Assembly: GCA_023053545.1 (NCBI GenBank)
Contig: JAKZAN010000007.1
Coordinates: 9,982,001 to 10,046,000, forward strand
Source: Lepidurus packardi
Lineage: Eukaryota > Arthropoda > Branchiopoda > Notostraca > Triopsidae
Length of the DNA: 64,000 nt
Reading direction: 5' to 3'
Shown here: piece by piece, positions 16,058 to 43,467 of the stretch
How positions within the stretch are numbered: position 1 is the first letter of the stretch
Layout of the letters: each line of letters opens with the position of its first letter
Translations under genes and position numbers: made by a program
Notes under the pieces: model-generated
Databases searched by the model: none
What the model was told of the DNA's origin: nothing
The model's input: only the letters and a program-made list of their open reading frames with translations

Positions 16058-16819
16058 ATGGCTTCCAAGAGATCCAAACTCGTCGCTCTACAAGTACTGT
16101 ACATATGCCTGACCGGTAACGTAACCTCCTTCTAGTAATTATAAGACTATGGATTAATCAATTTTTTTACTTTCAATGACAGTAGTACCCTACATAGGGT
16201 CCCAAATCTTGGATTTCGAATGTATTGACAATGTGGGTCGAATCCCAGGAATTAACGCCATTATTCTGAAAGCTGGTCCGTACATACCCTCGAATCCAAC
16301 AGCAATAGGCATATCTGCTGTAGAATGTGCTGCTCTATGTGTTCGCACTCTGTTGGGTACGTGTCAATCCTATGCGTATAACCCAGGTAACCAATCCTGC
16401 TTTACCCGGAATGTTACCTTGTACCAAGCTGGGGTACTTTGTGGCATTCGCGTTGATTGGTCGCGGAGACGATGCTCACGATCTGGGGACACATTTGTTG
16501 CATTTGGTGGTACGTTACTGTATACATTTCAGATTGGTGTTTTTTATCTATTTCGTTCCACTTTATAGGAAAAGCTCGTACCATGATGGAATGTATTTGC
16601 GGCGGCGAAAGCTATAAATGGACACTGACGAATAAAACCTGGTATTACAGCTGCATCGAACGGTGCAACAACACGTACCCCTGTGCGGTTGACATGGACT
16701 TGGTTAATAACTGTAAAATGTGCAACCAAAGTATAAGCGCCTGTGGCGGTACCCCGGGTATTACCACCGTGTATCAACGCATAGTTTGCATGCCTATATT
16801 TGCTATGCAATCTACCTAA
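16058..16819 (+). CDS. Array gene 1: secreted two-domain cysteine-rich protein
   Basis: Three exons (16058-16115, 16183-16509, 16569-16819), 211 residues; GT-AG introns, both phase 1. Exon 1 is a signal peptide (MASKRSKLVALQVLYICLT). Exon 2 is a PAN/Apple-like domain: an early Cys, a GRIPGI turn, ISAVECAALC, GTCQSYAYNP, SCFTRNVTL, LCGI and a final RC before SGDTFVAFGG. Exon 3, not recognised, starts TMMECICG and continues with a WYYSC-ERC-YPC-C-MC-AC cysteine series to a VCMPI tail; here the end is extended to FAMQST. NVT and NKT are possible N-glycosylation sites. It is the most diverged member and first in the array. No function is known; extracellular binding is suggested by the PAN-like fold only. 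Confidence 0.85.
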
Positions 16820-17111
16820 CCAAAACTTAGATTTAACTTGTGGAATTTAAAAAAAGAATGAAGGTGCTATAGTTTCTGTGTAGGCTGATATACAGAAAGT
16901 TTTCGTTTAATGTAATCGTCTAGTCTGCATACCTTCTAGTTTAATACAACCAAAACTACTATACCCTTTGTTTGCTTCTATCTATTTCTTTCTAATGATT
17001 CTAAATGGGTTTTCATTTAGCTGGTCTTGAAAGAATAAAAGAGATTTACGAAGAGACCAGGATTTCTTCAGTCGGCTAATGGGTATTAGAATCAGAACAC
17101 CACAACGTTCG

Positions 17112-17246
17112 ATCGCATTGTCCCCATAGAAGGTAACCCGTTAACACAATCTTTGGAAAGACATTAGAGAGTTTCTTACTGGATATTGAATATCAATTGT
17201 GCACTACAACATTGCCATGCGACACGTCGTTAAGCGCAGAGTTGTT
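17112..17246. repeat. Duplicated upstream segment, copy 1
   Basis: Matches 18598-18735 (CCATAGAAGGT, CAATTGTGCAC, GTTGCCATG landmarks in order). Each copy lies upstream of an array gene (genes 2 and 3), so gene and leader were duplicated together. Confidence 0.7.
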
Positions 17247-17309
17247 TTCTTTTGGAAAGCGATACTTTGAAATAGGACAGTATTCCGAGTCCCGTCCATT
17301 CGACAAGAC

Positions 17310-18073
17310 ATGGCTAACACTGTAACCTTGGCAATCTTGCAGGCTTTATTCCTTTACATCACACGTAAGTACTTTATTTATTTTTATTAAATAAGGGAAA
17401 CTATCGTCAATGAATGCATTGTACATTTTAGTGTCGTCCACACAATGGAGTAATTTTCAATTTAAATGCCTTGGCAACGAAGGTCGTACACCAGGAATTC
17501 TTGATTATATTTCAAAATTTGGAGATTTGGCTCCCTCGATTCCAACGGCAGTGGACGTCTCAGCCCTACAATGCGCTTTACTATGTGTTCAAACTCGCTT
17601 TAGTGCTTGTCAATCGTATTCCTACGACCCAGTTACCCGGTATTGCTTTACTCGTAACATCACGCTGTATCAAACTGGGATCCTGTGTGGTATTCGCGTT
17701 GATCAATCCCGCTTAAGATGCCAACAACCGGGTGACACGTTCATTGCATACGCTGGTACATTGTTTGACTTCTTTCGAATCACTCAAGACAAATTTAGCT
17801 GTTAAGGTAACACGACTCTATCCTAATCCCCTAGGTCCGGATCAAACCATGATAGAATGTATTTGTGGGATAAGAGCTATCGATTGGACGAGTCAACCCG
17901 ATGATCCCACATTTAATGTGTGCATTGGAGGATGCCAGAATCAGTATCCTTGTGCGGTGCACATGGGTGCAACAAGAAATTGTGTGCTATGTACTTGGGC
18001 GCCACGTGCTTGCAGTAATACGGCCTTTGTTGACTCTAAAATTCGCCTTGTTTGCATGCCTATTCCAGTGTAA
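17310..18073 (+). CDS. Array gene 2: secreted two-domain cysteine-rich protein
   Basis: Exons 17310-17364, 17432-17755 and 17835-18073 give 205 residues in one frame. Signal peptide MANTVTLAILQALFLYIT. The PAN-like exon has ISA-replacing VSALQCALLC and FSACQSYSYDP, YCFTRNITL, LCGI. Exon 3 begins TMIECICG instead of TMMECICG and lacks the NW-PC word, using NQYPCAV. A CAGTATTCC version of the array start-site motif lies at 17278, 32 bp before the ATG. A broken close relative lies at 29.7 kb, so this subtype was also part of the block duplications. Confidence 0.85.
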
Positions 18074-18597
18074 TTATAACGTCAGCTTCACTGACAGGGG
18101 AGTCAACGGTATATTATCAAACAGTAGTTAATACATAGGTTTATGTCAACATCCAGTTTACTAATAGTGCAAAGTTAATTTTATATATTATTAAATGTTT
18201 TTACTATTTTATTATTAAATCTTTTATTTAGAACTTTTTATTACTAAATCAGACCAATATCCATGGAATACTATTTTCAAGCGAACCTCATCAACAACTT
18301 TACCTTTTCCTACTATGGACTTCCCCATGTATCCGCACATTCATGGGTAGTACCTTGTCTGTGTATTACCATACACCAGGACTTCAGGACCCCAGCAGGG
18401 TTTGTTCTCTTGCTCCATCACTCACTCAAATGTATCCTTTGCTTAATAGAAATTTCACACGCAGCAATTTGGAAGTAAAAACTGTATCACCAGTTCAAAA
18501 CAAAATAAAATATCTAGTAAAGCAAAACCACTGGCTTGAGCCGGTATCGACCTACGCTTTGCTAGCTAGTAAATTACCAATATTCTGTCCCAAATAA

Positions 18598-18735
18598 CGA
18601 CAATTGCATTGTCGCCATAGAAGGTGACAGGCTAAAACCTAACCTTTGGAAATATATTAAAGAGTTTATTACTGGGTACTGAATACCAATTGTGCACAAA
18701 AACGTTGCCATGTGATACGTTAGAACGCAGGCGTT
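18598..18735. repeat. Duplicated upstream segment, copy 2
   Basis: Diverged copy of 17112-17246, upstream of array gene 3. Confidence 0.65.
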
Positions 18736-18972
18736 TAGTATGTGAAGTATATTTCGGACAGAATGTTTAGTGATCAGCTGACCTTTTCTTTGAGGTGGCA
18801 TTGCATTCAGGTTTCGATCAGACCCAGTTTTATATTGAACATCAACTTCGTAGAAGGGCTACTTTTCTCTGGGTGTGCTTGCTTGCTAGTGCGTTGTCCA
18901 GTTGCGGATTCCTTTGTCGAAGTAATAGTTTAGGACAGGTTAGTCATCCAGGTAGTCACTAGTAGAAAAGAT

Positions 18973-19708
18973 ATGGCTAACAGGATGTTTAAACTCGGTG
19001 TCTTACAAGCTTTATACATGTACATCGCAGGTACGTCACTTTAATTTTATTGTCAAAGTGTTACAGCAATGGTCTATTTCCAGTGTCTTTCGAAGAGTCA
19101 AGTTTCTCAAATTTCAAATGTATTGACTCTCCCGGTCGTACATCGGGAATTCTTGATGTTATTCTGCAATTTGGACCATTGAACAACTCGACTTCAACAG
19201 CAATAGGCATCTCTGCCATACAGTGCGCAGCATTGTGTCAGCCATTTACGGCTTGTCAGTCATATTCATATAACCCAGTCACCCAACATTGCTTTACGCG
19301 TAACATCACGCTGCAACATCAGGGGATTTTATGCGGTATTCCGATTAATGACTCTCAACAAAAATGCCAACGATCTGGCGATACATTCATTGCGTATGGT
19401 GGTATATATATTTTTCAAAAGTTTGAGGAGGTTAGCTGCAATTAACGTAACACCCATTTTATATTATAGGTGAAAATAGAACTATGATGGAATGCATTTG
19501 TGGAGTATATAATAATCTGAACTGGGCTACAACAATGAACGAGCGCTACAAATGCATAGAAAGCTGCAAGAACTGGTATCCTTGTGCGGTTTATATGGGC
19601 GCAACGAATGCATGCCAATTTTGTAATGCAACCGTAAGTGCTTGTAGTCCGCTAACTCCTGACTTTGACAAGAAAACTCGTCTGGTGTGCATGCCTATTC
19701 ATTTTTAA
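18973..19708 (+). CDS. Array gene 3: secreted two-domain cysteine-rich protein
   Basis: Exons 18973-19030, 19084-19401 and 19470-19708; 204 residues. Signal peptide MANRMFKLGVLQALYMYIA of the A subtype. Exon 2 carries CIDSPGRTSGILDV and the short (318 bp) A-type version of the domain; exon 3 carries CNATVSAC and ends VCMPIHF. The leader has the A-type GAGGTGGCATTGC block at 18792, and TAGTCATCC in place of CAGTGTTCC at -32. All cysteines of the family pattern are present. Confidence 0.85.
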
Positions 19709-19807: not shown

Positions 19808-20308
19808 AAATCTCTGCCATTCAGTGTGCATCACTGTACAACCAATTAATAGCCTGCCAGTCATACTCGTATAACCCGGTAACGCAATATTGCTTTACAC
19901 GTAATATCACTCTGCAACATAACGCAGTTCTGTGCGGTATTTCCGTTAATGAGTCTCAACAAAAATGCCAACGATCTGGCGATACCTTCACTGCGTATGG
20001 TGGTATATATTGATTTTCCAAAAGTTTGGGAAGGTTAGCTGCAATTTTCGAAACGCCCTTTTTATATTGGTGAAAATAGAACTATGATGGAATGCATTTG
20101 CCAAGCATTTAATAATGGCCCACCAGTGACTAGTATTTCGCAGTACAATTGTATGGAAAGGTACGTGAACTGGTATCCTTGTGCGGTTTATACACGTGCA
20201 ATAAATTACTGAGATTTTTGTAACACAACGGTAAGTGCTTGTAATGGCGGAACACCAATTAGTGACAGTAATCCAATAAAATTGATTTGCATGCCCATTC
20301 CCCCTTAA
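19808..20308 (+). pseudogene. Array pseudogene after gene 3
   Basis: Matches the second half of exon 2 (19808-20002) and all of exon 3 (about 20070-20308), A subtype. No signal-peptide exon or first half of exon 2. In the CASLC word the second Cys codon has become Tyr. The exon 3 acceptor has lost its AG (ATATTGGTG instead of ATTATAGGTG), and a TGA at 20210-20212 replaces a conserved Cys codon. It ends with the family tail and stop. Confidence 0.85.
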
Positions 20309-21179: not shown

Positions 21180-22085
21180 CATAGAAAAACTAAACTAGTG
21201 TGTATGCCTATTACTGTCGTACTAATACTCAAGACCGACTGGTGCAACGGGATATACTCAGAAATGCTTCAGAAAGAATGGGATAGTTTTGCTTTCAATA
21301 TGATATTCTATGCACCCAAATTAAGAAGTTTATAAGGTTTTTAGTGAGATTTAGCGAGCAATACATGATGCGTATCCGTATTTGAGCAAGTTTGGTGATT
21401 TGCAGTAATTTTTTATGGCTTGATAAGAAAATAAAAATATACGATGCGTATTTGCCTAGATCATAGAATAGCCTAAGGCAATTGTAGATCTGTCCTACAG
21501 TAGAAACTCTTTACACCGAAAATTCCGACTTAGTTTCAGTCAAATAGGAAGAAAATGAAAAACTTATAACACATATAACTTCAGCAGAAATATAATATCT
21601 GTGCTGTGCGTCAACTTAACGGCTTCCACGGAGGTTAGAGAGGAAATACAGAAGGCTTAGGCTATAGCTATAGGAAAGGAAAGGATTAGAATAAAACTCT
21701 AAAGATTATCGGTTATATACATGGGCGTGGTCGTGCAACGTTAGGATAATAAACTATACTCTAACGATTATCGGTTAGAAGATGAGACTACCAAACGTCT
21801 AGGCGCAATTTAGCGTGTCTGAGAAACGACAAATTCCTGTAATACCGATCCAATGGGCACAGAAATTTAGATACCTTGGTCGTCTATAGTCGATTTTTAT
21901 GATTTCTTAGCCCACCTTGGGGTTTGTACCTCTTGTATCCCAGTGTTCCAAGTTCTCGCAATTCGACAAGACATGGCTTACATAATTCGTAAACTGACTC
22001 TCTTACATATGTTGTGCGTTTACAACGAACGTAAGTATCTCTGCAAGCTATAACATACAAGCAAGACTTACCGTCTGTTTTTTCA
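21180..22085. repeat. B-type block duplication, leader of gene 5
   Basis: About 900 bp closely similar to 34685-35571 (leader of the gene at 35460) and partly to 30205-30682. It opens with a fragment of an exon 3 tail (GTGTATGCCTATTACTG) that is the same in the 34.7 kb copy, which marks the duplication edge. It contains GGGCGTGGTCGTGCAACGTT and CTAACGATTATCGGTTAGAAG. Confidence 0.8.
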
Positions 22086-22718
22086 GTGTCTTCAACACAA
22101 TTGAGTATTTTGCAGTTCAAGTGCGTTACTGTCTCCGGCCGCACTCCAGGAATAGTTATCTTGATCCCGCAGAGAGCTAATAACTTGGCTTCTCGGGTTC
22201 CGACAGCAATTGGCATTTCTGCAATACAATGTGCCTCACTGTGTGTCCAAACACCGCAAAATGCTTGTCAGTCCTATTCGTACAACCCAGACACCAAGTA
22301 CTGCTTCACTCGTAACATAACGCTGAGTTACAATGGGTCTCTGTGTGGAGTTGCTGTTGACCTAGCTCGTGACAAATGCCAACGATCTGGTGACACATTC
22401 ATTGCGTATGGTGGTACGAAGCCTTTGTATAGAGTTTTTTCTTATAAGAAAGTAACAGGATTACCTTTGGATTGTACAGGCCAAGCTCGAAGCATGATGG
22501 AGTGCATTTGTGGGGTCGATACCAACCAATGGATGGAACCGACAACATCGCTGTACAATTGCATCGAAATGTGCAACAACAAATACCCTTGTGCGGTTGA
22601 ATTAAGGTCAATTAATCGTTGTAGAATGTGTAATGGTTCAGTAGGTTCTTGTAACAGTGTCCCGATACTTACTGCTTCCGAAAAAAACCGCCTAGTTTGT
22701 ATGCCCATCCCTGCGTAA
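21973..22718 (+). CDS. Array gene 5: secreted two-domain cysteine-rich protein (B subtype)
   Basis: Exons 21973-22030, 22087-22413 and 22480-22718; 207 residues. Signal peptide MAYIIRKLTLLHMLCVYNE is shared with the genes at 30570 and 35460. B-type exon 2 is 327 bp, with CVTVSGRTPGIV, CASLCVQTPQNACQSYSYNP and a SYNGSLCG loop. Exon 3 has EMCNNKYPCAV and NGSVGSC. Intron 2 is 66 bp, a multiple of three, with no stop in frame, so an unspliced reading would also be open (see findings). CAGTGTTCC at 21941 lies 32 bp before the ATG. Confidence 0.85.
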
Positions 22719-23878: not shown

Positions 23879-24624
23879 ATGGCTGGCAGGACGTTTAAAC
23901 TGTGTGTCTTACAAGCTTTATACATGTACATCGCAGGTAACTCACTTTTGGACTAAAATCGTAACAACAATGGTCTCTTTCTAGTTTCATCTATGGAGTC
24001 AAGTATATCCCATTTTAAATGTATTGACTCTCCTGGTCGTACACCGGGTATTCTGGATGTAATTCTGCAATACGGGCCCTTGATCAACACGACTCCAACA
24101 GCAATAGGCATCTCTGCCGTACAATGTGCATCACTATGCAAGCGATATACAGCTTGCCAGTCATACTCATATAACCCGGTCACCCAATATTGCTTTACGC
24201 GTAATGTCACGCTGCAACATCAGGGGATTTTATACGGTACTCCCGTTAATGAGTCTCAACAAAAATGCCAACGATCTGGCGATACATTCGTTGCGTATGG
24301 TGGTACATGAGATTTTTAAAGTTTTAAGAAGTTAGCTGCAGCTAGAAAATAAGATGATTTCTTTCTGTTTGAACAGGTAAAGATAAAACCATGCTGGAAT
24401 GCATTTGTGGCGCATTTCATAATCATAAATGGGGTGACAGTGCTTCGGGTTACTCGCGCTACGATTGCAGTGACAGGTGCAAGAACTGGAATCCTTGTGC
24501 GGTTTACATAGGTGCAGCTGACGCATGCGATATTTGTAATACAACGGTAAGCGCTTGTAATGGGGGCACACCAACTAGGGACAATAATCCAAAACGAATG
24601 ATTTGCATGTCCATTCTCCCTTAA
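23879..24624 (+). CDS. Array gene 6: secreted two-domain cysteine-rich protein (A subtype)
   Basis: Exons 23879-23936, 23985-24302 and 24377-24624; 207 residues. Signal peptide MAGRTFKLCVLQALYMYIA. Exon 2 has CIDSPGRTPGILDV, CASLCKRYTACQSYSYNP and YCFTRNVTL. The usual LCG word reads LYG, so one domain cysteine is lost, as in the gene at 37547. Exon 3 starts TMLECICG and ends ICMSILP, where M-P-I-P is the norm. CAGTGTTCC at 23847. It may be functional with an unpaired cysteine or be starting to decay. Confidence 0.82.
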
Positions 24625-25189
24625 TTATAACAATGTACCGTTGTATCTATGTAGGAAACGAAGAAAGTACTCGTGTTCTATTGTAGTAAACCGTTTTTGA
24701 AGTTTTGTGTGCTTTAAAAGTGTTCTAGAAATACACAAACTTATAATCCTAAATGAATTCCTATAAAAGGTACTTTAACCGACTTCGATAAGACATGAAG
24801 CAATCACTTTCTAGTGATGTCCCAGTAAAGTTACTTTAGTATAATTAAGTCATCTAAGACTGAATGCCTATAATCGAGGACAATTAATTCAAAGTACGCG
24901 CTTCATTAAGTACGCTTCATAAAGTACGCGTAATATTGCGCATTGGACGCATTTTATCCACCATGATTTTACTTTCAGGTAAAAAGTTCGCTGTTCGCTC
25001 CAACACCTAATGAGATTTAAAACTAGCTACAGAAATCCAGTAAATCCAGACACAATAAAGTGCACCTAAACGTTTCATAGTCTCATCTTCTAACCGATAA
25101 TCCTTAGAGTTTATTATCTACAAAAGGTACTTTAACCGACTTCGATAGTGGTGGTATTCCGGTTCCTAAATCCTAAGACAACTTGCAAA

Positions 25190-25315
25190 GATCTGGCGAT
25201 ACATTCCTTGCATATTGTACTGTTACAGGAGATTTTTCAAAGTCTTACGAAGTTAGGTACACGAATTCGGGACACTAAAAACAGCGCCTGGTTCGCATGT
25301 CCTTTGCCTGTTAAT
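25190..25315 (+). pseudogene. Array gene remnant
   Basis: The end of an exon 2 (TCTGGCGATACATTC, TGCATATTG) followed by a piece resembling an exon 3 end (GCATGTCCTTTGCC). No open structure remains. A related remnant lies near 38440-38530. Confidence 0.55.
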
Positions 25316-26113: not shown

Positions 26114-26858
26114 ATGTCTGACAGGATGCTTAAACTGTATGTTTTACAAGCACTATACATGTACATCGCAGGTATTTCCTTTTAATTTTATATTCTAATC
26201 CAATTAGCAATGGTACTTTTCCAGTGTCCTCCATACCGCCAAGTACGTCAATTTTTAAATGTATTGACTCTCCTAGTCGTACACCAGGACTTTTTGATGT
26301 TATTCTGCAATTTGGACCCTTGATCAACTCGACTCCCACAGCAAAAGGCATATCTGCCATACAGTGTGCATCACTGTGCAAACCATTTACAGCTTGCCAG
26401 TCCTACTCATATAACCCGGTCACCAGATATTGCTTTACGCGTAATGTTACGCTGCAGCATAAGGGGAATTTATGCGGTATTCCCGTTAATGAGTCTCAAC
26501 AGCAATGCCAACAATCTGGCGACACATTCATTGCGTATGGTGGTATATATAACCTTTTCAAAGTCTTTGTTAGTAAGCTGAAATGAACGTAACTTTTAAT
26601 ATGGTAGGTGAACATAAAACCATGATGGAATGTATTTGTGGCGCATCTAATAATTTTGCATGGTCTGATGGTAGTAGTTCCGTGTACTCGCGCTACAATT
26701 GCAGTGACAGGTGCAAGAACTGGCATCCTTGTGCGGTTTACATAGGTTCAAGTTCCTCGTGCGATATTTGTAATAGCACTGTAAGCGCTTGTAATGGCGG
26801 CACACCAATTAGGGACACTGCTCCAAAACGAATGATTTGCACGCCCATTCCCCCTTAA
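26114..26858 (+). CDS. Array gene 7: secreted two-domain cysteine-rich protein
   Basis: Exons 26114-26171, 26225-26542 and 26608-26858; 208 residues. Signal peptide MSDRMLKLYVLQALYMYIA starts MSD rather than MAG. Exon 2 has CIDSPSRTPGLFDV and CASLCKPFTACQSY; the last exon 2 Cys is set in QQCQQSGDTF. Exon 3 has a Ser-rich insert before YSRYNCSDRC and ends ICTPIPP, with Thr for the usual Met. The GAGGTGGCAATGC block is at 25936. CAGTGCTCC lies 30 rather than 32 bp before the ATG. Confidence 0.85.
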
Positions 26859-28309: not shown

Positions 28310-29063
28310 ATGGCTGGCAGGACGTTTAAACTGTGTGTCTTACAAGCTTTATACATGTACATTGCAGGTACGTCCCTTTAATTTTGCATTAAAAGATAAA
28401 CGACAATGGTTTCTTTCTAGTTTCATCTATGGAGTCAAGTATATCACATTTTAAATGTATTGACTCTCCTGGTCGTACACCGGGAATTCTTGATGTTATT
28501 CTGCAATATGGACCCTTGATTAAATCGACTCCTACAGCAAAAGGCATATCTGCCATACAGTGTGCATCACTGTGCAAACCATTTACAGCTTGCCAGTCAT
28601 ATTCATATAACCCAGTCACCCAACATTGCTTTACGCGTAACATCACGCTGCAACATAAGGGGATTTTATGCGGTATTCCCATGAATGAGTCTCAACAAAA
28701 ATGCCAACGATCTGGCAATACATTCATTGCATATGGTGGTAACAAGAGATTTTTCAAATTATTAAAAGGTTAGCTGCAGCCAAAAAATTGAAGTGTTCTC
28801 TTCCTGATTGTATAGGTAAAAATAAAACCATGATGGAATGCATTTGTGGCGCATTTCATAATCATAAATGGGGTGACAGTGCTTCGGGTTACTCGCGCTA
28901 CGATTGCAGTGACAGGTGCCAGAACTGGTATCCTTGTGCGGTTTACATAGGTACAGTTGACGCGTGCGATATTTGTAATGCAACGGTAAGCGCTTGCAAT
29001 AGCAGTACACCAATTGTGTTTTCTAATCCAAAACGATTGACTTGCATGCCTATTCCCCCTTAA
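28310..29063 (+). CDS. Array gene 8: secreted two-domain cysteine-rich protein (A subtype)
   Basis: Exons 28310-28367, 28421-28738 and 28816-29063; 207 residues. Signal peptide identical to gene 6 (MAGRTFKLCV...). Exon 2 keeps all family cysteines, including LCG, and has CKPFTACQSY like gene 7 and gene 3, so it mixes an A-type leader with the KPF variant. Exon 3 is almost identical to that of gene 6 over its first half (HNHKWGDSASGYSRYDC), then diverges and ends TCMPIPP. CAGTGTTCC at 28278; A-type upstream block at 28161-28203. Confidence 0.87.
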
Positions 29064-30200: not shown

Positions 30201-30204
30201 TGAT

Positions 30205-30682
30205 ACAGCTTATATAGCTATAGGAAACTAGGAACTGATATTAGTTATACAGCTATAGGAAAGGTAAGGAGTAGAATAAAACTACAAATTGTAAAGATTA
30301 TCCGTGATGTACAGTACATGGGCGTGGTCGTGCAACGTTAGGATAATAAACTATACTCTAACGATTATCGGTTAGAAGATGAGACTATCAAACGTCTAGA
30401 CGCATTTTAGCGTGTCTGAGGAACGACAAATTCCTGTAATACCGATCCACTGGGCACAGAAATGTAGATACGTTGATCCTCTATAGTCGATTTTTATGAT
30501 TTCTTAGCCCACCTTGGGGTTTGTACCTTTTGTATCCCAGTGTTCCAAGTCCTCTCCTTTCGACAAGACATGGCTTACATAATTCGTAAACTGACTCTCT
30601 TACATATGTTGTGCGTTTACAACGAACGTAAGTATCTCTGCAAACTATAACATACAAACAAGACTTACCGTCTGTTTTTCAG
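30205..30682. repeat. B-type block duplication, leader of gene 10
   Basis: Same leader as 21640-22085 and 35130-35571 but truncated on the left, where it abuts the gene 2-like pseudogene. Carries CTATAGTCGATTTTTATGAT and CTTTTGTATCCCAGTGTTCC. Confidence 0.75.
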
Positions 30683-31309
30683 TGTCTTCAAAACAATTGA
30701 GTATTTCGCAGTTCAAGTGCATTACTGTCTCGGGTCGCACTCCAGGAATAGATAGAATGATCCCGCTGGGAGCCAAATACTTGGCTTCTCGGGTTCCGAC
30801 AGCAATTGGCATTTCTGCAATACAATGTGCCTCACTGTGTGCCCAAACACCGCGAAATGCTTGTCAGTCCTATTCGTACAACCCAGACACCAAGTACTGC
30901 TTCACTCGTAACATCACGCTGAGTTACAATGGGTCTTTGTGTGGAGTTCCTGTTCACCTAGCTCGCGATAAATGCCACCGATCTGGCGACACATTCATTG
31001 CGTATGGTGGTACGAAGCCTTTGTATAGATTTTTTTTATAAGAAAGTAACAGGATTATCTTTGGATAGTACAGGCCAAGCTCGAAGCATGATGGAGTGCA
31101 TTTGTGGGGCCGACGCCAACCAATGGTCTGAAAAGTTAGCAACGCTGTACAATTGCATCGAAATGTGCAACACATATCCTTGTGCGATTGAATTTGTATC
31201 GCTCACCGTTCCTTGTAGAATTTGTAAAGGTTCAGTAGGTTCTTGTCACGGTGTTCCGATACTTACTTCGGAAAAAAGCCGCCTAGTTTGTATGCCCATT
31301 CCTGCGTAA
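30570..31309 (+). CDS. Array gene 10: secreted two-domain cysteine-rich protein (B subtype)
   Basis: Exons 30570-30627, 30683-31009 and 31074-31309; 206 residues. Same signal peptide as gene 5. Intron 2 is 64 bp, so unlike gene 5 it shifts frame if retained. Exon 2 has CITVSGRTPGID and CASLCAQTPRNACQSY. Exon 3 has EMCNTYPCAI, one residue shorter than in genes 5 and 15, then PCRICKGSVGSC. CAGTGTTCC at 30538. All family cysteines present. Confidence 0.87.
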
Positions 31310-31840: not shown

Positions 31841-32629
31841 ATGGCTGGCAGGACGTTTAAACTGTGTGTCTTACAAGCATTATACATGTACATCGCAGGT
31901 ACGTCCCTTTAATTTTGCATTAAAAGATAAACGACAATGTCTCTTGCCAGTGTCGTCCGTAAAGCCAAGTATATCCCATTTTAAATGTATTGACTCTCCT
32001 GGTCGTACACCGGGTATTCTGGATGTAATTCTGCAATTTGGACCCTTGATCAACTCGACTCCAACAGCAATAGGCATCTCTGCCGTACAATGTGCATCAC
32101 TATGCAAGCGACAAAAAGCTTGCCAGTCGTACTCATATAACCCAGTCACCCAATATTGCTTTACGCGTAAAGTCACGCTGCAACATCAGGGGATTTCATG
32201 CGGTACTCCCGTTCATGAATCTCGACAGAAATGCAAACAATCGGGCGATACATTCATCGCATATCGCGGTAAGTACTTGAGACTACGCCTGCTACTACTA
32301 AAAAATTACTAGAGATTTTTCACAAGTTTTCAAAAGTTAGCTGCCGCTAGAAAATAAAATTATTTCTTCCTGATTTTACAGGTACAGATAAAACCATGCT
32401 GGAATGCATTTGCGGCGTATATAGTGGTTGGGTTGATACAACTACTTCGGTTTACTCGTTCTACAATTGCACTGACAGGTGCAAGAACTGGTATCCTTGT
32501 GCGGTTCTTATAGGTGCGTATAACGGGTGCGACATTTGTAATGCAACGGTAAGCGCATGTGGCGGTACCCCAACTAGGGACAGTAACCCAAAACGAATAG
32601 TTTGCATGCCCATTCCCACTAGATTTTAA
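31841..32629 (+). CDS. Array gene 11: secreted two-domain cysteine-rich protein (A subtype)
   Basis: Exons 31841-31898, 31951-32268 and 32382-32629; 207 residues. Signal peptide as in gene 6. Intron 2 (113 bp) is longer than in its sisters. Exon 2 has CKRQKACQSY and TRKVTL, losing the NVT glycosylation site kept in most copies. The exon ends AYRG instead of AYGG. Exon 3 has the shorter GVYSGWVDTTTSVYS segment and a charged tail, PIPTRF. CAGTGTTCC at 31809; upstream block at 31692-31734. Confidence 0.86.
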
Positions 32630-33257: not shown

Positions 33258-33565
33258 TCTTGACGCATTCATTGTGCAAGGTGGTACATGAGATGTTTTA
33301 AAGTTTCAAAAAGTTAGGTGCAGCTATACAAAATATATTTCTTCCTGATTTTATAGGTGAAAATAAAACCATGATGGAGTGCATTTGTGGCGCATTTCAT
33401 AATAATGAATGGGGGGATAGTAGTATTTCGGGTTACTTGCGCTACGATTGCAGTGACAGGTGCAAGAACTGGTATCCTTGTGCGGTTCTCGTAGGTGCGC
33501 AAGGCCGGTGCGATATTTGTAATGCAACGGTAGGCGCATGTGGCGGTACACTAACTAGGACATAA
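33258..33565 (+). pseudogene. Array pseudogene, mainly exon 3
   Basis: The end of exon 2 (33258-33286, GCATTCATTGTGCAAGGTGG) and an exon 3 with a good acceptor (33357-33565) reading MMECICGAFHNNEWGD. The frame stops at TAA 33563-33565 after LTRT, so the last cysteine and MPIP tail are missing. No exon 1 or main part of exon 2 upstream. Confidence 0.8.
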
Positions 33566-33704: not shown

Positions 33705-34462
33705 ATGGCTCTGATGATACTTGAACTGGTACTCTTGGTACAAGTTCTATACACTTATGTTACAGGTGAGTTCTTTAATTACTTTACAGTCTAACTATAT
33801 TAAACAAACATCGTTTGCTTCTTAGTGTCTTCTACACTGTCAAGCTTTTCGCAGTTTAAGTGTATTAACTCTCCCGGTCGTGTACCGGGAATTCTTGATA
33901 TTATTCTGCAAGATGGACCTTTGGTTCCTTTGATTCCAACAGCAGTGGGAATCTCGGCCTTTCAATGCGCATCATTGTGTGTTGAGGCGAAATTTAACGC
34001 TTGCCAATCCTACTCATATGATTCGGTCACCCGGCATTGCTTTACACGTAATATCACACTATATCAAACTGGGATCCTCTGCGGTATTCCTGTTGACCAG
34101 TCTCGAGGAAAGTGCCAAACAAATGTCGAAACATTCATCGCATACGGTGGTGCGTAAGATTGCTTCGTGTTAAAATGCTAATCGAAAGTAAACTGACACA
34201 GTATCTTCCTAATCAAATAGGTACAAATAAAACCATGATGGAATGCATTTGTGGGAAACGTAATGGCAATTGGAAACAAGTATCTGGCTATCCCTTGCCA
34301 TATGATTGCATAAATGCGTGTCAGAATTCGTATCCTTGCGCGATTAACATACATGGATCAAATTACTGTGATTTTTGTAATAATACAATAAGCACCTGTT
34401 CCTTTAAAGTATCCTCTACCAGAATAGAAAACGCTCTGATTTGCATGCCCATTCCCCCTTGA
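33705..34462 (+). CDS. Array gene 13: secreted two-domain cysteine-rich protein (C subtype)
   Basis: Exons 33705-33765, 33826-34149 and 34221-34462; 208 residues. The C-type signal peptide MALMILELVLLVQVLYTYVT is one codon longer than in A and B. Exon 2 has CINSPGRVPGILDI, CASLCVEAKFNACQSYSYDS and TNVETFIAYGG, so the usual SGD before TF is replaced. Intron 2 starts GTGCGT. Exon 3 has GKRNGNWKQVSGYPLPYDC and ends ICMPIPP. CAGTGTTCC at 33673, within an 80 bp leader shared with the genes at 39467 and 42715. Confidence 0.86.
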
Positions 34463-34619: not shown

Positions 34620-34735
34620 TTCCTTGTACCATGTGTAACAAAACAGTAAGCGTTTGCACGACAACCCCGGTTCTTGTTGCCGACCAAACTAAACTAGTGT
34701 GTATGCCTATTACTGTCGTACTAATACTCTAGACC
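34620..34735 (+). pseudogene. Exon 3 tail fragment
   Basis: Contains CCATGTGTAACAAAACAGTAAG and GTGTATGCCTATTACTG, equivalent to the CNATVSAC and VCMPI parts of exon 3. Its last part is duplicated near 21176-21230 and marks the edge of the B-type block. Confidence 0.65.
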
Positions 34736-35571
34736 GACTGGTGCAACGGGATATATTCAGAAATGCTTCAGAAAGAATGGGATACTTTTGCTTTCAATAT
34801 GATATTCTATGCACCCAAATAGGAAGTTTGTAAGGTTTTTAGTGATTTTTAGCGAGCAATACATGATGCGTATCCGTATTTGAGCAAGTTTAGTGATTTG
34901 CAGTAATTTTTTATGGCTTGACAAGAAAAGAAAGATATAATGTGCGTGTTTGCCCAGATCATGGAACAGCCTAAGACAATTGTAGATCTGACCTACAATA
35001 GAAACTCTTTACACCAAAAATACAAATAATTTCAGTCAAATAGGAAGAAAATGAAAAACTTAAACTTCAGCAGAAATATAATATCTGTGCTGTGCGTCAA
35101 CTTAACGGCTTCCACGGAGACTAGAGAGGAAATACAAAAGACTTAGGCTATAGCTATAGGAAAGGTAAGGAGTAGAATGAAACTACAAATTGTAAAGATT
35201 ATCGGGTACATAAATGGGCGTGGTCGTGCAACGTTGGGATTATAAACTATACTCTAACGATTATCGGTTAGAAGATGGGACTATCAAACGTCTAGGCGAA
35301 TTTTAGGGTGAAACGACAAATTCCTGTAATACCGATCCACTGGGCAGAGAAATTTAGATACCTTGATCGTCTATAGTCGATTTTTATGATCTCTTAGCCA
35401 ACCTTGGGGCTTATACCTTTTGTATCCCAGTGTTCCAAGTTCTCGCATTTCGACAAGACATGGCTTTCATAATTCGTAAACTGACTCTCTTACATATGTT
35501 GTGCGTTTACATCGAACGTAAGTATCTCTGCAAGCTATAACATACAAGCAAGACTTAGCGTCTGTTTTTCA
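34685..35571. repeat. B-type block duplication, leader of gene 15
   Basis: Partner of 21180-22085. Similarity continues through gene 15 and past it to about 36780, equivalent to 22718-23280 downstream of gene 5. Confidence 0.8.
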
Positions 35572-36212
35572 GTGTCTTCAACACAGTTGAGTATTTCGCA
35601 GTTCAAGTGCGTTACTGTCTCCGGCCGCACTCCAGGAATAGCTAGCATAATCCCGATGGGAGCTACTAACTTGGCTTCTCGGGTTCCGACAGCAATTGGC
35701 ATTTCTGCAATACAGTGTGCATCACTGTGTGTCCAAACACCACGAAATGCTTGTCAGTCCTATTCGTACAACCCAGACACCAAGTACTGTTACACTCGTA
35801 ACATCACCCTGAGTTACAATGGGTCTCTGTGTGGAGCTCCTGTTGACCTAGCTCGCTATAAATGCCAACGATCTGGGGACACATTCATTGCGTATGGTGG
35901 TACGAAGCCTTTGTATAGAGTTTCTTTTTATAAAAATTAACAGGATTATCTTTGGATTGTATAGGCCAAGATCGAAGCATGATGGAGTGCATTTGTGGGG
36001 CCGACGCCGACAAATGGCTTGAAAAGTCAGCAACGCTCTACAATTGCATCGAAATGTGCAACAACACATATCCTTGTGCGATTGAATCTGTATCGCTCAC
36101 CGTTCCTTGTAGAATTTGTAAAGGTTCAGTAGGTTCTTGTAACAATTTTCCGATACTTGTTGCTTCGGAAAAACGCCGCCTAGTTTGTATGCCCATTCCG
36201 GCGCAATTATAA
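35460..36212 (+). CDS. Array gene 15: secreted two-domain cysteine-rich protein (B subtype)
   Basis: Exons 35460-35517, 35573-35899 and 35965-36212; 210 residues. Signal peptide MAFIIRKLTLLHMLCVYIE. Exon 2 has CVTVSGRTPGIAS and CASLCVQTPRNACQSY; the YCFTR word reads YCYTR. Intron 2 is 65 bp with an in-frame TAA near its 5' half. Exon 3 keeps EMCNNTYPCAI and PCRICKGSVGSC and ends CMPIPAQL, extended by two residues because the GCG TAA end of gene 5 reads GCG CAA here. CAGTGTTCC at 35428. Confidence 0.86.
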
Positions 36213-36991: not shown

Positions 36992-37049
36992 ATGGCTGAC
37001 AGTATGTTTAAACTGATTGCCCTACAAGGTTTGGACATGTACATCGCAG
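36992..37049 (+). pseudogene. Orphan signal-peptide exon
   Basis: An A-type exon 1 (MADSMFKL...) with its leader, including the GAGGTGGCAATGC block at 36821 and GATCAGTGTTCCAGG at about 36968. The donor GT after GCAG is GC (GCAGGCACGT), and no exon 2 follows before the next complete gene leader at 37.2 kb. Confidence 0.75.
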
Positions 37050-37546: not shown

Positions 37547-38293
37547 ATGGCTGGCCGGGCGTTTAAACTGTGTGTCTTACAAGCTTTATACATGGACATC
37601 GCAGGTAATTCACTTTTGCACTAAATCGTAACGGCAATGGTCTCCTTCTAGTTTCGTCGTTGGAGTCAAGTATATCACATTTTAAAGGTATTGACTCTCC
37701 TGGTCGTACACCGGGACTTCTTGATGTTATTCTGAGATCTGGACCCTTGATTAACTCGACTCCAACAGCAATAGGCATCTCTGCCGTACAATGTGCATCA
37801 CTATGCATGCGATATACAGCTTGCCAGTCATACTCATATAACCCGGTCACCCAATATTGCTTTACGCGTAATGTCACGCTGCAACATCAGGGGATTTTAT
37901 ACGGTACTCCCGTTAATGAGTCTCAACAAAAATGCCAACGATCTGGCGACACATTCGTTGCGTATGGTGGTACATGAGATTTTTAAAGTTTAAGAAGTTA
38001 GCTTCAGCTAGAAAATAAAATGATTTCTTTCTGTTTGAACAGGTAAAGATAAAACCATGCTGGAATGCATTTGTGGCGCATTTCATAATTATGCATGGGG
38101 GGATAGTAATTCTTTGGGTTATTCGCGCTACGATTGCAGTGACAGGTGCAAGAACTGGAATCCTTGTGCGGTTTTCATAGGTGCAGCTGACGCGTGCGAT
38201 ATTTGTAATGCAACGGTAAGCGCTTGTAATAGCAGTACACCAATTGTGCACAATAATCCAAAACGATTGATTTGCATGCCCATTCCCGCTTAA
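37547..38293 (+). CDS. Array gene 16: secreted two-domain cysteine-rich protein (A subtype)
   Basis: Exons 37547-37604, 37652-37969 and 38043-38293; 208 residues. Signal peptide MAGRAFKLCVLQALYMDIA has an Asp near its end. Exon 2 lacks two family cysteines: the first one (FKC reads FKG) and LCG (reads LYG, as in gene 6). Exon 3 is intact (FHNYAWGDSNSLGYSRYDC, VSAC, ICMPIPA). CAGTGTTCC at 37515 and upstream block at 37399-37440. The frame is open, but loss of two cysteines in one domain suggests weakened constraint; the two may have been partners in one disulfide, which is inference. Confidence 0.82.
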
Positions 38294-38439: not shown

Positions 38440-38530
38440 TTAGCCGACTTGAATAGTGAATACGGGATTCCGATGCGGTATTCCCGTTCCTAAATCTCAA
38501 GAAAACTTCAACTGATCTGGTGGTACATGA
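38440..38530 (+). pseudogene. Exon 2 remnant
   Basis: Short decayed stretch with GCGGTATTCCCGTTC and GATCTGGTGGTACATGAGAT, equivalent to the CGIPV and SGD parts of A-type exon 2. A second, weaker one lies near 38760-38845. Confidence 0.5.
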
Positions 38531-38542
38531 GATCTTAACAAC

Positions 38543-38598: not shown

Positions 38599-39466
38599 GG
38601 AGAACCACTTAGGACTTCTTGACCAGACTCCCTGCAATGTTTCTTACAGCTTTTCTTTCAGTTTTAAAAACGTTCCAGCGATACATAATCTTATCATCCA
38701 ATTTAAATTCCTACAAACGGTACTCCTTACCTACTTCGCTAATGAAAATTGGGTTTCGTTGAGACGCTACCGTTCGTAAAGCTCAAGAAAAAGTCCAAGG
38801 ATCTGACGATACATTAATGGTATATCGTGGAGTTACACGAGAATTTTCAAAGTTTTGAAAAGCTAGGTACATCAACTAAGGTCACTAAAATCCAGTATAT
38901 AGTTTGCCTGCTCGTTGCCTCTTAATTGTAAGGTCAACTTCATCATTACTTCATTATTACCTTTCTTAAGTTTTCTATTATTCACGTAACGCTGTTTTTG
39001 AAACCACGAAATGCCTCTAATTCTATATTTCTAAGAATATCGTTAAATGAAAAATTACTGGAAGAATTCTAGGAGTTCTAATAAAACCAAATTTTGACAT
39101 TCCAACATGTTATTTATTACTATTGTTAGACACGTGAGCATAAAGAATAACCTAGAATTCTTGAAAAGAAATTACCTTTCCTTATCATGTTGGCCATGGT
39201 GACGCGCCTTTGCTTGTTTAGTAGCAGGTATTCGAGGAAGAAAATTTCATGCAACAAGAGTAAAAAAAATAAAACAGTCAACCTACCAAGATGCTACTCA
39301 ACTGCCTGTAGGTCTAACTAGGCAAAAGGACATTTACCTGGATATTCTTGTAATAAAACCTGTGAGCCGGTTAATGTCCTCAAAATGCGTCATGTTCGTT
39401 CATTTCTTTGTCACAGAAATAACAGGGACCAGAACAGTGTTCCAAGTCGACTTCCTAAGAAAAGAC

Positions 39467-40224
39467 ATGGCTCTGATGATACTTAAACTGGTACTCTTGG
39501 TACAAGTTCTATACACTTATGTTACAGGTGAGTTCTTTAATTACTTTACAGTCTAACTATATTCAACAAACACCGTTTGCTTCTTAGTGTCTTCTACACT
39601 GTCAAGCTTTTCGCAGTTTAAGTGTATTAACTCTCCCGGTCGTGTACCGGGAATTCTTGATATTATTCTGCAAGATGGACCGTTGGTTCCGTTGATTCCA
39701 ACAGCAGTGGGAATCTCGGCCTTTCAATGCGCATCATTGTGTGTTCAGGCGAAATTTAACCCTTGCCTATCTTACTCATATGATTCGGTCACCCGACATT
39801 GCTTTACACGTAATATCACACTATATCAAACTGGGATCCTCTGCGGTATTCCTGTTGACCAGTCTCGAGACAAATGCCAAACAACCGGCGAAACATTCAT
39901 CGCATACGGTGGTGCGTACGATTGTTTCGTTTTAAAATGCTAATCAAAATTAAGCTGACGCAGTCTCGTCCGAATCAAATAGGTACAAATAAAACCATGA
40001 TGGAATGCATTTCTGGGAAACGTAATGGCAATTGGAAACAAGTATCTGGCTATCCCTTGCCATATGATTGCATAAATGCGTGTAAGAATTCGTATCCCTG
40101 CTCGTTTGCCATAGAAGGAACAGATTACTGTCATTTTTGTAATGATACAATAAGCACCTGTTCCCTTAGAGTAGACTCTGTCGGTAAAGAAAACGCTCTG
40201 ATTTGCATTCCCATTCCCCCTTGA
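39467..40224 (+). CDS. Array gene 17: secreted two-domain cysteine-rich protein (C subtype)
   Basis: Exons 39467-39527, 39588-39911 and 39983-40224; 208 residues. Close sister of gene 13, with a nearly identical leader, introns and signal peptide (MALMILKLVLLVQVLYTYVT). Exon 2 has NPCLSYSYDS, losing the Q-S of CQSY but keeping Cys. Exon 3 starts MMECISG, so the second Cys of the invariant CIC word is Ser, and it ends ICIPIPP. CAGTGTTCC at 39435. Confidence 0.84.
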
Positions 40225-41379
40225 TTACGATATCGACTTGGTCTATATCTGGCTAAATTCCACGTTTTAATTCACAACTAAAAACTTTCAAGTTTTGAGT
40301 GTATCAAAAGTGTTCCAACAATGCACAATTCCTTTTGTCCAGACAGACAGCTTGGATTCCTAGAAACTACCTTCACCCGATTTCGATTATAGACAACTGA
40401 GCTAAAACCACACAGAAATTACCTGAAAATATTCGTGGATTTTGCAAATAAATGAAAAGCTTTTCACTTACACATACCAAATCGACTTTCTAACTATTTT
40501 CAAAGAAAAGAGGGGTTTTGCCTCCAACAGTGTACGTTATCATTATTATCATTATTTCAAACAGAACTATTCCAAACAAAACAGAACTTTTATAATAAAG
40601 ATAACCGAAGTATGCACTATGGAGCTTTTTTATTTCCTGCAAAGTACCACATCGCAGGTATGGAAGAAATATTCACAATAAAGCTTGGTAACCGATTAAA
40701 AGAGCACTTTCTCTCAGATATGAAATGGTTTTATTAAGCTTTTATTTTACTGTGCTCTTCAACATGACTTTGCTCTACTTTGCTTCACCAAACAGGAATA
40801 TTACTTCTTTGGAAATAGACGAAATTATTACATCTTTCACTGTGTGTTACTATTAATTTCAAGGAAATAAAGTTGACCTGAACTTCCCAGCCCTGTTTGA
40901 CATTTATTGTTGACCTGCCGGTACTTCGCTGTCTAAAGAATTTTGATAACTTGGGAGTCACGTGCAAGTGATACGGGGTCATAACTATATGGTAGGTGGA
41001 AACCTTAATTCATACTTGGTGTGAGCAATCTTAACGATGTCGAAGGACTCTTAACGATGTCGAAGCTCGATAGAACCTGGAATAATTTGTAATAAACCTT
41101 TACGGTATTGAACATCCCCTTCACATCCCTACTGACGCATTCTGATTACGCAATTCTCTAGTATAGCAGGTACCGTATCTGCTCAATAGTGCGTGCCATA
41201 GTAGTCCCCTTAACTTTGTCAAAAACAGACAGGGCTAACGAAACGTACGGAATTCTGTTGCGAGCTTTCTCTTTCCTATTTCTCAGTAAGTTAATCCTAT
41301 GTTAGTAATACAAAGCAAATAACCCTTAAAAATTGTAGTGTCGACTCCGTACTCAAATATCTTATATTTTCAATGTATA

Positions 41380-41500
41380 AACAATACCGATCGTACCTCC
41401 GGAATTCCTGATGTTAAGTAATCGACTAATCTTTCCAAGAGGGCTTGTTTCCTAATCGCATAGACATAAGTCAAAACTTGTATCCTTGTGCGGCTATCAT
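41380..41500 (+). pseudogene. Array gene remnant
   Basis: ACCGATCGTACCTCCGGAATTC and CTTGTATCCTTGTGCGGC correspond to the GRTSGI part of exon 2 and the YPCAV part of exon 3, now only about 90 bp apart and out of frame. Confidence 0.6.
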
Positions 41501-41511
41501 CTTATATCATA

Positions 41512-41562
41512 TTATCTTTTATCATATTATCTTTTATCATATTATCTTATATCCTTGGCAGC
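41512..41562. repeat. ATCATATTATCTTTT tandem repeat
   Basis: Three to four copies of a 15 bp AT-rich unit. Confidence 0.8.
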
Positions 41563-42189
41563 TATCAGTCCCATAGCTGACGGATATGACGCGTAAATCT
41601 GCGCGTACTACAAAAACAATTCAAGCTTTTGCACTTCTACATCGTCCATATTTGGCAGTGTAGGGAAATCAAATCTACTTGCATGCCACTTTCAGGGAGT
41701 CCTACCTTGGCGGTCTAATGAACGCCTAAATGTTTAGTCTCTGTATCGCAGCACTGTACTCAGGTACAGGAGTGGATTGGATTGAAGTTTGCGTCAATAC
41801 AATCAACGGAGTTTGCGAATGGAACTTCTTTATATGGTCCAATCCCAGTCCTTTGTATCCTGTACATTACCTCTGTCAACAATGCGTTTACTTCCCCTTT
41901 CAAATAAATGATGATAAATGTACTGATGTACAGTACAGTCCTATGGAGGTAAACGCTTCACAACGCACTTGGAATGCGTCATAGCATGCTCTAATCTTTG
42001 TCAATGAATAGAAGGACCTTTATTTTTCCAAAACGCAAGGCTTTCGCAAAAACGATAACAAACATCAACGCCATCTGTGGTTGTTTCGCATCAACTAGCT
42101 AAGGTATACGGGAGCCTTAACTAGGCCCTCACATGCCCTAAAAGTTGGCAGAACTCCAAGCTTACTATTTCTAGTGCATTTTATGGTCC

Positions 42190-42400
42190 TTCTGGACCAC
42201 ATTTCGAGTGCTATAAAGCGTTTTGTCAATACAAGGTACCCGCCCAATTCACCGTGTCAAAATGATGTACGACTACTTCGGCTTCTGGCACAGGACATGC
42301 ACAGGGTCATAACTGTCGTACGATGTTCCAACCTTCGTTCCTACTTGTACGATCGAATCCGGTGATGAGGCGTACGTAAGGCTTTAATGAACATTGGATC
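42190..42400. repeat. Direct repeat flanking gene 18, left copy
   Basis: Shares TACCCGCCCA, ACTACTTCGGCTTCTG, CACAGGGTCATAAC and CCGGTGATGAGGCGTACG with 44178-44398. Confidence 0.8.
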
Positions 42401-42714
42401 TTTTTTACGAGCATGTAACATGACTGGAATTCTTGACAAAACCCTTCCTTTTCCCTTCGTATGTTGACTCCCATACAGCACAGCACAATCAGCCGGAAGC
42501 GATTTGTCTTTATCCCGATAGCTATCGATCCGAAACAATACCACTCACTAGTCTAAAGCACAAGCTAGGGGCAGAAGCGAAAGGTCATTAACTGATATTA
42601 CTGTCTAATAAAAGCAGTAAAGGTCATTGAAATCACGTCACGTTTGTTCTTTCCTTCGCCACAGAAATACTTGGGACCAGAACAGTGTTCCAAGGCGACT
42701 TCCTAAGAAAAGAC

Positions 42715-43467
42715 ATGGCTCACGTAGTTCTTAAACTGGTACTCTTACAAGTTTTGTACACTTATATCAAACGTGAGTCCCTTAATTACTATACGGCCTA
42801 TAACTATGTTACAAATACGGTTTGCTTCTTAGTGTCTTCTACACTGGCAAGTATTTCAAATTATAAATGTACTGATTCTCCTGGTCGTACACCGGGAATT
42901 CTTGATGTTATTCTGACATTTGGACCCTTGATTAACTCGACTCCAACAGCAATAGGCATCTCTGCCGTACAATGTGCATCACTATGCAAGCGATATACAG
43001 ATTGCCAGTCATACTCATATAACCCGATCACGCAATACTGCTTTACGCGTAATATCACGCTGCAACATACAGGGAGTGTATGCGGTACTCCAGTTAACGA
43101 GTCTCAACAACAATGCCAACAATCTGGCGATACGTTCATTGCGTATGGTGGTATATTTAAATGTTTCAGAGTTTGGAGAAGTTAGCTGTAATTTTCATAA
43201 CCCCCTTTTAATATTGTAGGTAGAAATGCAACCATGTTGGAATGCATTTGTGGCGCATTTCATAATTTTAATTGGAATAGAACTTTAGAGGTTTACTCGC
43301 ACTACAATTGCAGTGACAGGTGCGAGAACTGGTATCCTTGTGCGGTTTACATAGGTGCTGGCGGTTATTGCGATATTTGTAATACAACGGTAAGTGGTTG
43401 CGATGGCGGTACACCAACTGGGCACATTAATTCGAAAAAATTGATTTGCATGCCCATTCCCTCTTGA
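42715..43467 (+). CDS. Array gene 18: secreted two-domain cysteine-rich protein (C/A chimera)
   Basis: Exons 42715-42772, 42833-43150 and 43220-43467; 207 residues. Leader and signal peptide (MAHVVLKLVLLQVLYTYIK) are C type, with CAGTGTTCC at 42683 as in genes 13 and 17. Exons 2 and 3 are A type: 318 bp exon 2 with CTDSPGRTPGILDV, CASLCKRYTDCQSYSYNP and SGDTF, then TMLECICG, YSHYNCSDRC and ICMPIPS. The switch lies in or near the start of exon 2, fitting a recombinant gene. Last intact member of the array. Confidence 0.86.

What the first reader, a model, noticed from the sequence alone, without database searches (positions are those of the whole stretch)
16058..43467. Tandem array of 14 two-domain cysteine-rich secreted proteins
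Fourteen intact three-exon genes and eight or more broken copies lie head to tail on one strand in 27 kb. Each joins a signal peptide, a PAN/Apple-like domain and a second cysteine-rich domain (TMMECICG ... CMPIP) that I do not recognise. All 14 models close in frame. Such clusters usually serve secretion-heavy roles (mucosal, salivary, cuticle, defence or mating), but which one is unknown.
Basis: partly seen in the sequence, partly recalled or inferred. Interest (0 to 1): 0.8.

Follow-up and report, generated by a model that had tools for sequence, protein, structure and literature searches.

The report
Tandem PAN-domain secreted protein genes
A small arthropod genome, probably a crustacean's, carries a cluster of related genes for cysteine-rich proteins that are probably secreted; each joins a known binding module (PAN) to a second, unrecognised module with fast-changing loops, so they may be a family of diversifying binding proteins, but nobody yet knows what they bind.

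Summary
All 14 models (16058..43467) splice cleanly: GT-AG introns, both in phase 1, 204-211 aa, one stop. I count ten remnants between them. Exon 2 is a PAN/Apple domain (Pfam PAN_1 reported for 14 of 14). Exon 3 has no convincing Pfam match and no PDB sequence match; structure prediction failed (pLDDT 54).

New here: (1) Six more copies lie upstream and 13 diverged places lie on four contigs. (2) Twelve of 14 genes carry an Inr-DPE-like core promoter just before the ATG. (3) Sixteen cysteines are kept in 21 of 28 members; paired losses suggest C1-C6 and C3-C4 as in apple domains, and a bond tying exon 2 to exon 3. (4) Exon 2 is under purifying selection. Exon 3 keeps its frame, while one loop, perhaps two, changes faster than neutral; this is suggestive, not proof. 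(5) At least two genes look mosaic.

The host is an arthropod; a branchiopod crustacean is my guess. Best reading: a secreted binding-protein repertoire. Ligand, tissue and expression are unknown.

The parts
16058..16819 (+). g01: exons 16058-16115, 16183-16509, 16569-16819; 211 aa; no Inr-DPE pattern found
17310..18073 (+). g02: exons 17310-17364, 17432-17755, 17835-18073; 205 aa; Inr-DPE pattern upstream
18973..19708 (+). g03: exons 18973-19030, 19084-19401, 19470-19708; 204 aa; no Inr-DPE pattern found
19810..20306 (+). remnant: part of exon 2 and exon 3 with a stop
21187..21321 (+). remnant: repeat copy (D20, 98%) of 34686-34820, reaching an exon-3 tail
21973..22718 (+). g04: exons 21973-22030, 22087-22413, 22480-22718; 207 aa; Inr-DPE pattern
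23879..24624 (+). g05: exons 23879-23936, 23985-24302, 24377-24624; 207 aa; PAN cysteine 6 lost; Inr-DPE pattern
25153..25218 (+). remnant of exon 2
26114..26858 (+). g06: exons 26114-26171, 26225-26542, 26608-26858; 208 aa; Inr-DPE pattern, two bases nearer the ATG than in the others
28310..29063 (+). g07: exons 28310-28367, 28421-28738, 28816-29063; 207 aa; Inr-DPE pattern
29734..30181 (+). remnant related to g02: part of exon 2 and exon 3 with a stop
30570..31309 (+). g08: exons 30570-30627, 30683-31009, 31074-31309; 206 aa; Inr-DPE pattern
31841..32629 (+). g09: exons 31841-31898, 31951-32268, 32382-32629; 207 aa; Inr-DPE pattern
33356..33550 (+). remnant of exon 3
33705..34462 (+). g10: exons 33705-33765, 33826-34149, 34221-34462; 208 aa; Inr-DPE pattern
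34625..34711 (+). remnant: tail of exon 3
35460..36212 (+). g11: exons 35460-35517, 35573-35899, 35965-36212; 210 aa; Inr-DPE pattern
36992..37049 (+). remnant: lone exon 1
37547..38293 (+). g12: exons 37547-37604, 37652-37969, 38043-38293; 208 aa; PAN cysteines 1 and 6 both lost; Inr-DPE pattern
38464..38528 (+). short remnant of exon 2
38782..38829 (+). short remnant of exon 2
39467..40224 (+). g13: exons 39467-39527, 39588-39911, 39983-40224; 208 aa; second cysteine of exon 3 lost; Inr-DPE pattern
41353..41416 (+). short remnant of exon 2
42715..43467 (+). g14: exons 42715-42772, 42833-43150, 43220-43467; 207 aa; 5' end of the g10/g13 type, exon 2 of the g05 type (mosaic); Inr-DPE pattern

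Best explanation
A birth-and-death family of small, probably secreted, disulphide-rich binding proteins of an arthropod. Each gene is transcribed from its own TATA-less Inr-DPE type promoter (inferred from sequence). Exon 1 would encode most of a signal peptide (plausible). Exon 2 encodes a PAN/Apple domain (shown by profile match) that is kept by purifying selection (shown) and would hold the fold or a common partner (inferred). Exon 3 encodes a nine-cysteine module of unknown fold, tied to the PAN domain by one disulphide (inferred from paired cysteine losses); its long inter-cysteine loops vary in sequence and mostly in length on a fixed frame (shown) and would carry the variable ligand-binding surface (inferred). 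Unequal exchange adds, breaks and recombines copies (shown: remnants, mosaics). The most likely use is binding of varied glycans or proteins of microbes or other organisms in a secretion or at a body surface, that is, a recognition or defence role; this last step is a guess.
For:: 14 of 14 intact models, 204-211 aa, 15-17 Cys, 1-7 N-glycosylation sequons. PAN_1 reported for 14 of 14 exon-2 domains. Cysteine spacing of the core, +4,+8,+12 (+4,+6,+12 in the shorter type), against +4,+10,+12 for HGF positions 70, 74, 84, 96 given in PMC9249922 (passages); of 28 members, 21 keep all 16 cysteines; C1 and C6 are lost together in g12 (C6 alone in its relative g05), C3 and C4 together in three C4-contig genes (probably one event), C7 of exon 2 and the second Cys of exon 3 together in x6615. 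A first-to-last bond (Cys2-Cys85) is described for apple 1 of plasma kallikrein (PMC6899681, passages). CA[GT]T with RGWYV at +28..+32 in 12 of 14 window genes and 5 of 5 upstream copies that have an exon 1; pooled dN/dS of five disjoint pairs 0.34 in exon 2 and 0.98 in exon 3, N:S ratio different with p = 2e-6; loop C8-C9 of exon 3 above neutral (stratified one-sided p 0.002-0.003), loop C5-C6 p 0.016-0.018, rest of exon 3 strongly conserved (z about -6); mosaic genes.
Against: Exon 3 as a whole is not faster than neutral (p = 0.58; z -1.6 and -1.3), and its third long loop (C2-C3) is not either (p 0.21-0.23). The three loops were chosen after seeing 18 segments; with a correction for 18 only loop C8-C9 stays near 0.03-0.06. 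Relaxed constraint on loops would look much the same. Disulphide pairs rest on few loss events, and g13 lost the exon-3 cysteine without losing its proposed partner. The Inr-DPE pattern is missing in g01 and g03 and was not found at that position in 0 of 10 diverged genes; the copies share ancestry, so they are not independent. Secretion evidence is weak in 5 of 14 genes. No expression, ligand or structure data.
Confidence: 0.4

Rival explanations
1. Dosage array of structural or coating proteins: many copies are kept to make much of one product (egg-shell or cyst coat, cuticle, mucus, adhesive), and the exon-3 loops are simply unconstrained.
For: Exon 3 averages close to the neutral rate rather than above it; exon 2 is strongly conserved; many cysteines suit a cross-linked coat; two mucin-like T/S-rich open frames of probably secreted type lie beside the array.
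Against: Exon 3 keeps an exact nine-cysteine frame in 26 of 28 members while loop C8-C9 exceeds neutral in a stratified test; five subfamilies differ by more than a dosage array would need.
Confidence: 0.25
2. Reproductive proteins (seminal fluid, sperm-egg or egg-surface recognition) under sexual conflict or species recognition.
For: Fast loops on a fixed frame, mosaics and high turnover of copies are common in such genes (general knowledge).
Against: Nothing here points to gonads or accessory glands; no expression data.
Confidence: 0.15
3. Feeding or gland secretion acting on other organisms (for example anti-adhesion binding as reported for the leech antiplatelet protein, a PAN protein).
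For: PMC7191736 (passages) describes a secreted PAN protein of leech saliva that binds collagen.
Against: No gland expression known; the host is not shown to be a predator or parasite.
Confidence: 0.1
4. Exon 3 is a second, degenerate PAN or WSC-like domain, so the protein is just a double-PAN protein.
For: C-x3-C followed by cysteines at about +6 and +11 resembles the PAN core; the exon-3 model has the order b-b-a-b-b-b; WSC domains have a PAN/Apple fold (PMC9024836, passages).
Against: Profile comparison of exon 2 with exon 3 finds nothing; no PAN or WSC hit among 15 members; the model is of low confidence (pLDDT 54.1) and has no Foldseek match below E 3.0.
Confidence: 0.3

Closest known systems
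PAN/Apple domain superfamily (Pfam PF00024; HGF N domain, factor XI and prekallikrein apple domains)
   Same: Exon 2: profile match in 14 of 14, core cysteine spacing close to HGF's, first-to-last cysteine pair suggested (compare).
   Different: A seventh cysteine and an attached nine-cysteine module without known relatives; no protease, kringle or transmembrane part in these short proteins.
Secreted proteins with PAN modules: micronemal protein 4 (PDB 4a5v), leech antiplatelet protein, Ss-Sl2
   Same: Secreted, PAN as adhesive module; 4a5v is the best PDB match of exon 2, though weak (E 0.05 and 0.04). Ss-Sl2 is called secreted with two PAN modules (PMC3338822, abstract start in listing).
   Different: No significant sequence relation; the second module here is not recognisable as PAN.
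WSC domain (Wsc1, Kremen)
   Same: Exon 3 has a C-x-C-G followed by C-x3-C that recalls the end of WSC (recalled resemblance).
   Different: No Pfam WSC hit; no CGG motif, which PMC9024836 names as characteristic (passages).

Membership tests
PAN/Apple domain (exon 2) | Match to the family profile | tested here: met
   PAN_1 reported for 14 of 14 exon-2 domains at E <= 1, best 1.4e-6; the member shown in full scores 24.5 against a cut-off of 21.4. Two whole proteins fell just short, 19.1 and 21.0.
PAN/Apple domain (exon 2) | Core of four to six conserved cysteines with C-x3-C helix | tested here: met
   spacing compared with HGF. Three C4-contig genes have lost C3 and C4.
PAN/Apple domain (exon 2) | PAN fold | tested here: inconclusive
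   Model pLDDT 45.7; 86 Foldseek matches up to E 10, none at E <= 0.001.
PAN/Apple domain (exon 3) | Match to a PAN profile or to the exon-2 profile | tested here: not met
   No PAN family among 15 members; hhalign probability 0.2 and 0.3 percent.
WSC domain (exon 3) | Match to the WSC profile; CGG motif | tested here: not met
   No WSC hit; no CGG motif in the alignment.
Secreted lectin or adhesion protein | Signal peptide and secretion | tested here: inconclusive
   Crude hydropathy only; 5 of 14 have no clear N-terminal peak.
Secreted lectin or adhesion protein | Binding of sugar or protein ligand | not testable with these tools
   Needs protein and binding assays.

The most novel reading that the evidence does not exclude
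Exon 3 encodes a new disulphide scaffold, covalently locked to a PAN domain, that serves as a hypervariable recognition module; the array is a germline repertoire of secreted binders (immune or gamete recognition) in which exon-level exchange mixes PAN and variable modules.
Probability: 0.18. Interest if true: 0.72.

Novelty: new variant of a known kind. Interest (0 to 1): 0.42.

Why it matters
If true, it gives a compact, testable invertebrate example of a secreted binder repertoire: a conserved PAN module, a fast module of unknown fold tied to it, short promoters and mosaic copies all in one 27-kb array. Even if the function is ordinary, the exon-3 module is a well-defined orphan cysteine frame with at least 28 members in one genome, a good target for structure work and for comparison between related species.

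Tried and rejected
Fold of exon 3: two AlphaFold2 jobs gave low confidence, and Foldseek found nothing at E <= 0.001 for either model, so I draw nothing from the models beyond a remark on element order. Exon 2 and exon 3 as duplicates of each other: no profile support. WSC: no hit. Positive selection on exon 3 as a whole: not supported; one search used pairs beyond the five disjoint ones and only g04-g11 exceeded neutral (p 0.006 of 9 pairs). One search's neutral rate pooled unequal pairs and was too low (it gave p 9e-6, 0.001 and 0.009 for three loops); I replaced it by the stratified test. Viral contigs: 23 pattern matches, none a relative. Rfam: no family reaches its threshold in the window. 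Literature, listings only unless said: 'Daphnia' with 'PAN domain' 0 papers; 'PAN domain' with 'crustacean' 4 papers, which by title concern oomycetes (three) and psyllid chitinases (one); searches gave no paper that by its title describes this family. No eukaryote protein database was at hand, so 'undescribed' means only not found in these searches.
Full report
WHERE IT IS. A 25-base TTAGG repeat pattern occurs 104 times (90 forward, 14 reverse) against 0 for its reversed control, and nuclear copies of mitochondrial COI read as arthropod-like COI under the invertebrate code (the likeness is my recollection, not a search). Beside the array lie pieces of an adenylyl cyclase gene.

THE OBSERVATION. 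All 14 models close: three exons, 28 of 28 introns GT-AG, both introns in phase 1, 204-211 residues, 15-17 cysteines, 1-7 N-glycosylation sequons. Between them I count ten remnants, some only 48-66 nt long.

LARGER FAMILY. Six more copies lie upstream of the window at C6:9946333-9970676. By inspection four of the six (u1, u3, u4, u5) have all three exons open; u2 has its exon-3 remnant 1.2 kb away and u6 has no exon 1 within 420 nt. One further exon-2 fragment lies at C6:9969119-9969289. Thirteen diverged places lie on contigs C3, C4, C5 and C6 at 6.6 and 7.05 Mb; nine of them (x6612, x6615, x2808, x2810, x1816, x1847, x2452, x4066, x4067) have both large exons open, four are partial or broken. 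The searches are lower bounds by the tool's own statement. PAN_1 itself occurs 58 times at E <= 0.01 in the genome, many in unrelated genes.

EXON 2. Pfam PAN_1 is reported for 14 of 14 (best E 1.4e-6), with PAN_4 in 9 and PAN_2 in 8. Two whole proteins scored just under the PAN_1 cut-off. The best PDB sequence is micronemal protein 4 (4a5v, E 0.05, and 0.04), then HGF (E 0.24), both weak. The core cysteine spacing is +4,+8,+12, or +4,+6,+12 in the shorter type, against +4,+10,+12 in HGF (positions from PMC9249922, passages).

EXON 3. No PDB sequence up to E 10. In Pfam three unrelated families each match one of 15 members, best E 0.02. Profile comparison with exon 2 gives nothing. AlphaFold2 gave mean pLDDT 45.7 for exon 2 + read-through intron + exon 3 and 54.1 for exon 3 alone; Foldseek found 86 and 3 matches up to E 10 and none at E <= 0.001. 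The exon-3 model has the element order b-b-a-b-b-b, which would fit a PAN-like fold, but at this confidence that is only a remark.

CYSTEINES. In 28 members (14 window, 5 upstream, 9 diverged; u2 and four broken diverged places were left out) there are 7 + 9 cysteine columns, and 21 of 28 keep all 16. The seven exceptions: g12 has lost C1 and C6, g05 C6 alone; x1816, x1847 and x2452 have lost C3 and C4; x6615 has lost C7 and the second cysteine of exon 3; g13 has lost the second cysteine of exon 3 alone. C1-C6 is the first-to-last bond described for apple 1 of plasma kallikrein (Cys2-Cys85, PMC6899681, passages); C3-C4 and C2-C5 as the usual PAN core pairs are recalled. The x6615 pair suggests a bond between exon 2 and exon 3. 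This rests on three paired-loss events; g05 and g13 are single losses, and g13 speaks mildly against the last pair unless it is a recent change.

PROMOTERS. Upstream of the ATG, the pattern CA[GT]T with RGWYV at +28..+32 (Inr and DPE consensus recalled from Drosophila) is present in 12 of 14 window genes, not in g01 and g03, and in 5 of 5 upstream copies with an exon 1. The A of the Inr lies 31 nt before the A of the ATG in 11 window genes (printed as -30 by the script) and 29 nt in g06, so the DPE overlaps the start codon. Of 10 diverged genes, one shows the pattern, at another position, and none at this one. The copies share ancestry, so this is not 17 independent observations; still, no such pattern would be expected to survive in dead copies. 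Canonical AATAAA or ATTAAA within 350 nt after the stop is present in 8 of 14.

EVOLUTION. Over 91 pairs, median dN/dS is 0.31 in exon 2 (no pair with dN > dS) and 0.47 in exon 3 (10 pairs with dN > dS). For five disjoint pairs (not all of them sisters) the pooled values are 0.34 and 0.98, and the N:S ratio differs between exons with p = 2e-6. Exon 3 as a whole is not above neutral (p = 0.58). In the stratified test loop C8-C9 exceeds neutral (p 0.0019 with synonymous sites plus introns, 0.0032 with synonymous sites alone), loop C5-C6 gives 0.016 and 0.018, loop C2-C3 0.23 and 0.21, and the rest of exon 3 is strongly conserved (z -6.0 and -5.6). The loops were chosen after one search had looked at 18 segments; corrected for 18, loop C8-C9 is at 0.03-0.06. 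This is suggestive of diversification, not proof. Mosaics: g14 and u5 share an exon-1 peptide and are sisters in the exon-2 tree (support 0.99), but in the exon-3 tree u5 sits with g07 and g12 (0.715) inside a group that leaves g14 out (0.888). The 5' end of g14 belongs to a repeat with those of g10 and g13 (D16) although its exon 2 belongs with g05 and its kin (D1).

READING. Shown: intact genes, PAN domain in exon 2, conserved cysteine frame, unequal constraint of the exons, turnover and mosaic copies. Inferred: secretion, promoters, disulphide pairs, exposure of the loops. Guessed: ligand binding and a recognition or defence role. I put 0.4 on the secreted binder repertoire and 0.25 on a dosage array of coat or mucus proteins.

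NOVELTY. A new variant of a known kind: PAN proteins are common, but I found no description of a PAN domain joined to this nine-cysteine module. That statement covers Pfam, PDB sequences, viral contigs and the paper searches; no eukaryote protein database was searched.

Noticed in passing
window 1649-2848 (-) and 9871-11694 (-): Two T/S-rich, mucin-like open frames with similar N- and C-terminal parts and C-x-C ends lie beside the array; a search with the first found five places in the genome, three of them on C1 and C3.
   Followed up: partly
window 46217-46678 (-) and 55992-56690 (-): Pieces of an adenylyl cyclase gene (Pfam Guanylate_cyc E 6.6e-16 and AC_N E 9.9e-29).
   Followed up: no
window 63647-63873: Tandem repeat of 21 bases, 10.8 copies; the minus-strand frame reads as an (A/S)-rich seven-residue repeat.
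   Followed up: no
window 10324-11105: Tandem repeat of 156 bases, five copies, inside the longer T/S-rich frame.
   Followed up: no
G000 contigs C1, C2, C4, C6, C21, C38 and others: Many COX1-like stretches with in-frame TGA, probably nuclear copies of mitochondrial DNA; three contigs (C52, C214, C43) hold COX1-like frames without stops, perhaps bacterial contaminants.
   Followed up: partly
L029 (G000:C4:1531301-1535700): A long open frame (680 residues, minus strand, read with table 5) that looks like a transposase, lying between COI-like pieces.
   Followed up: no
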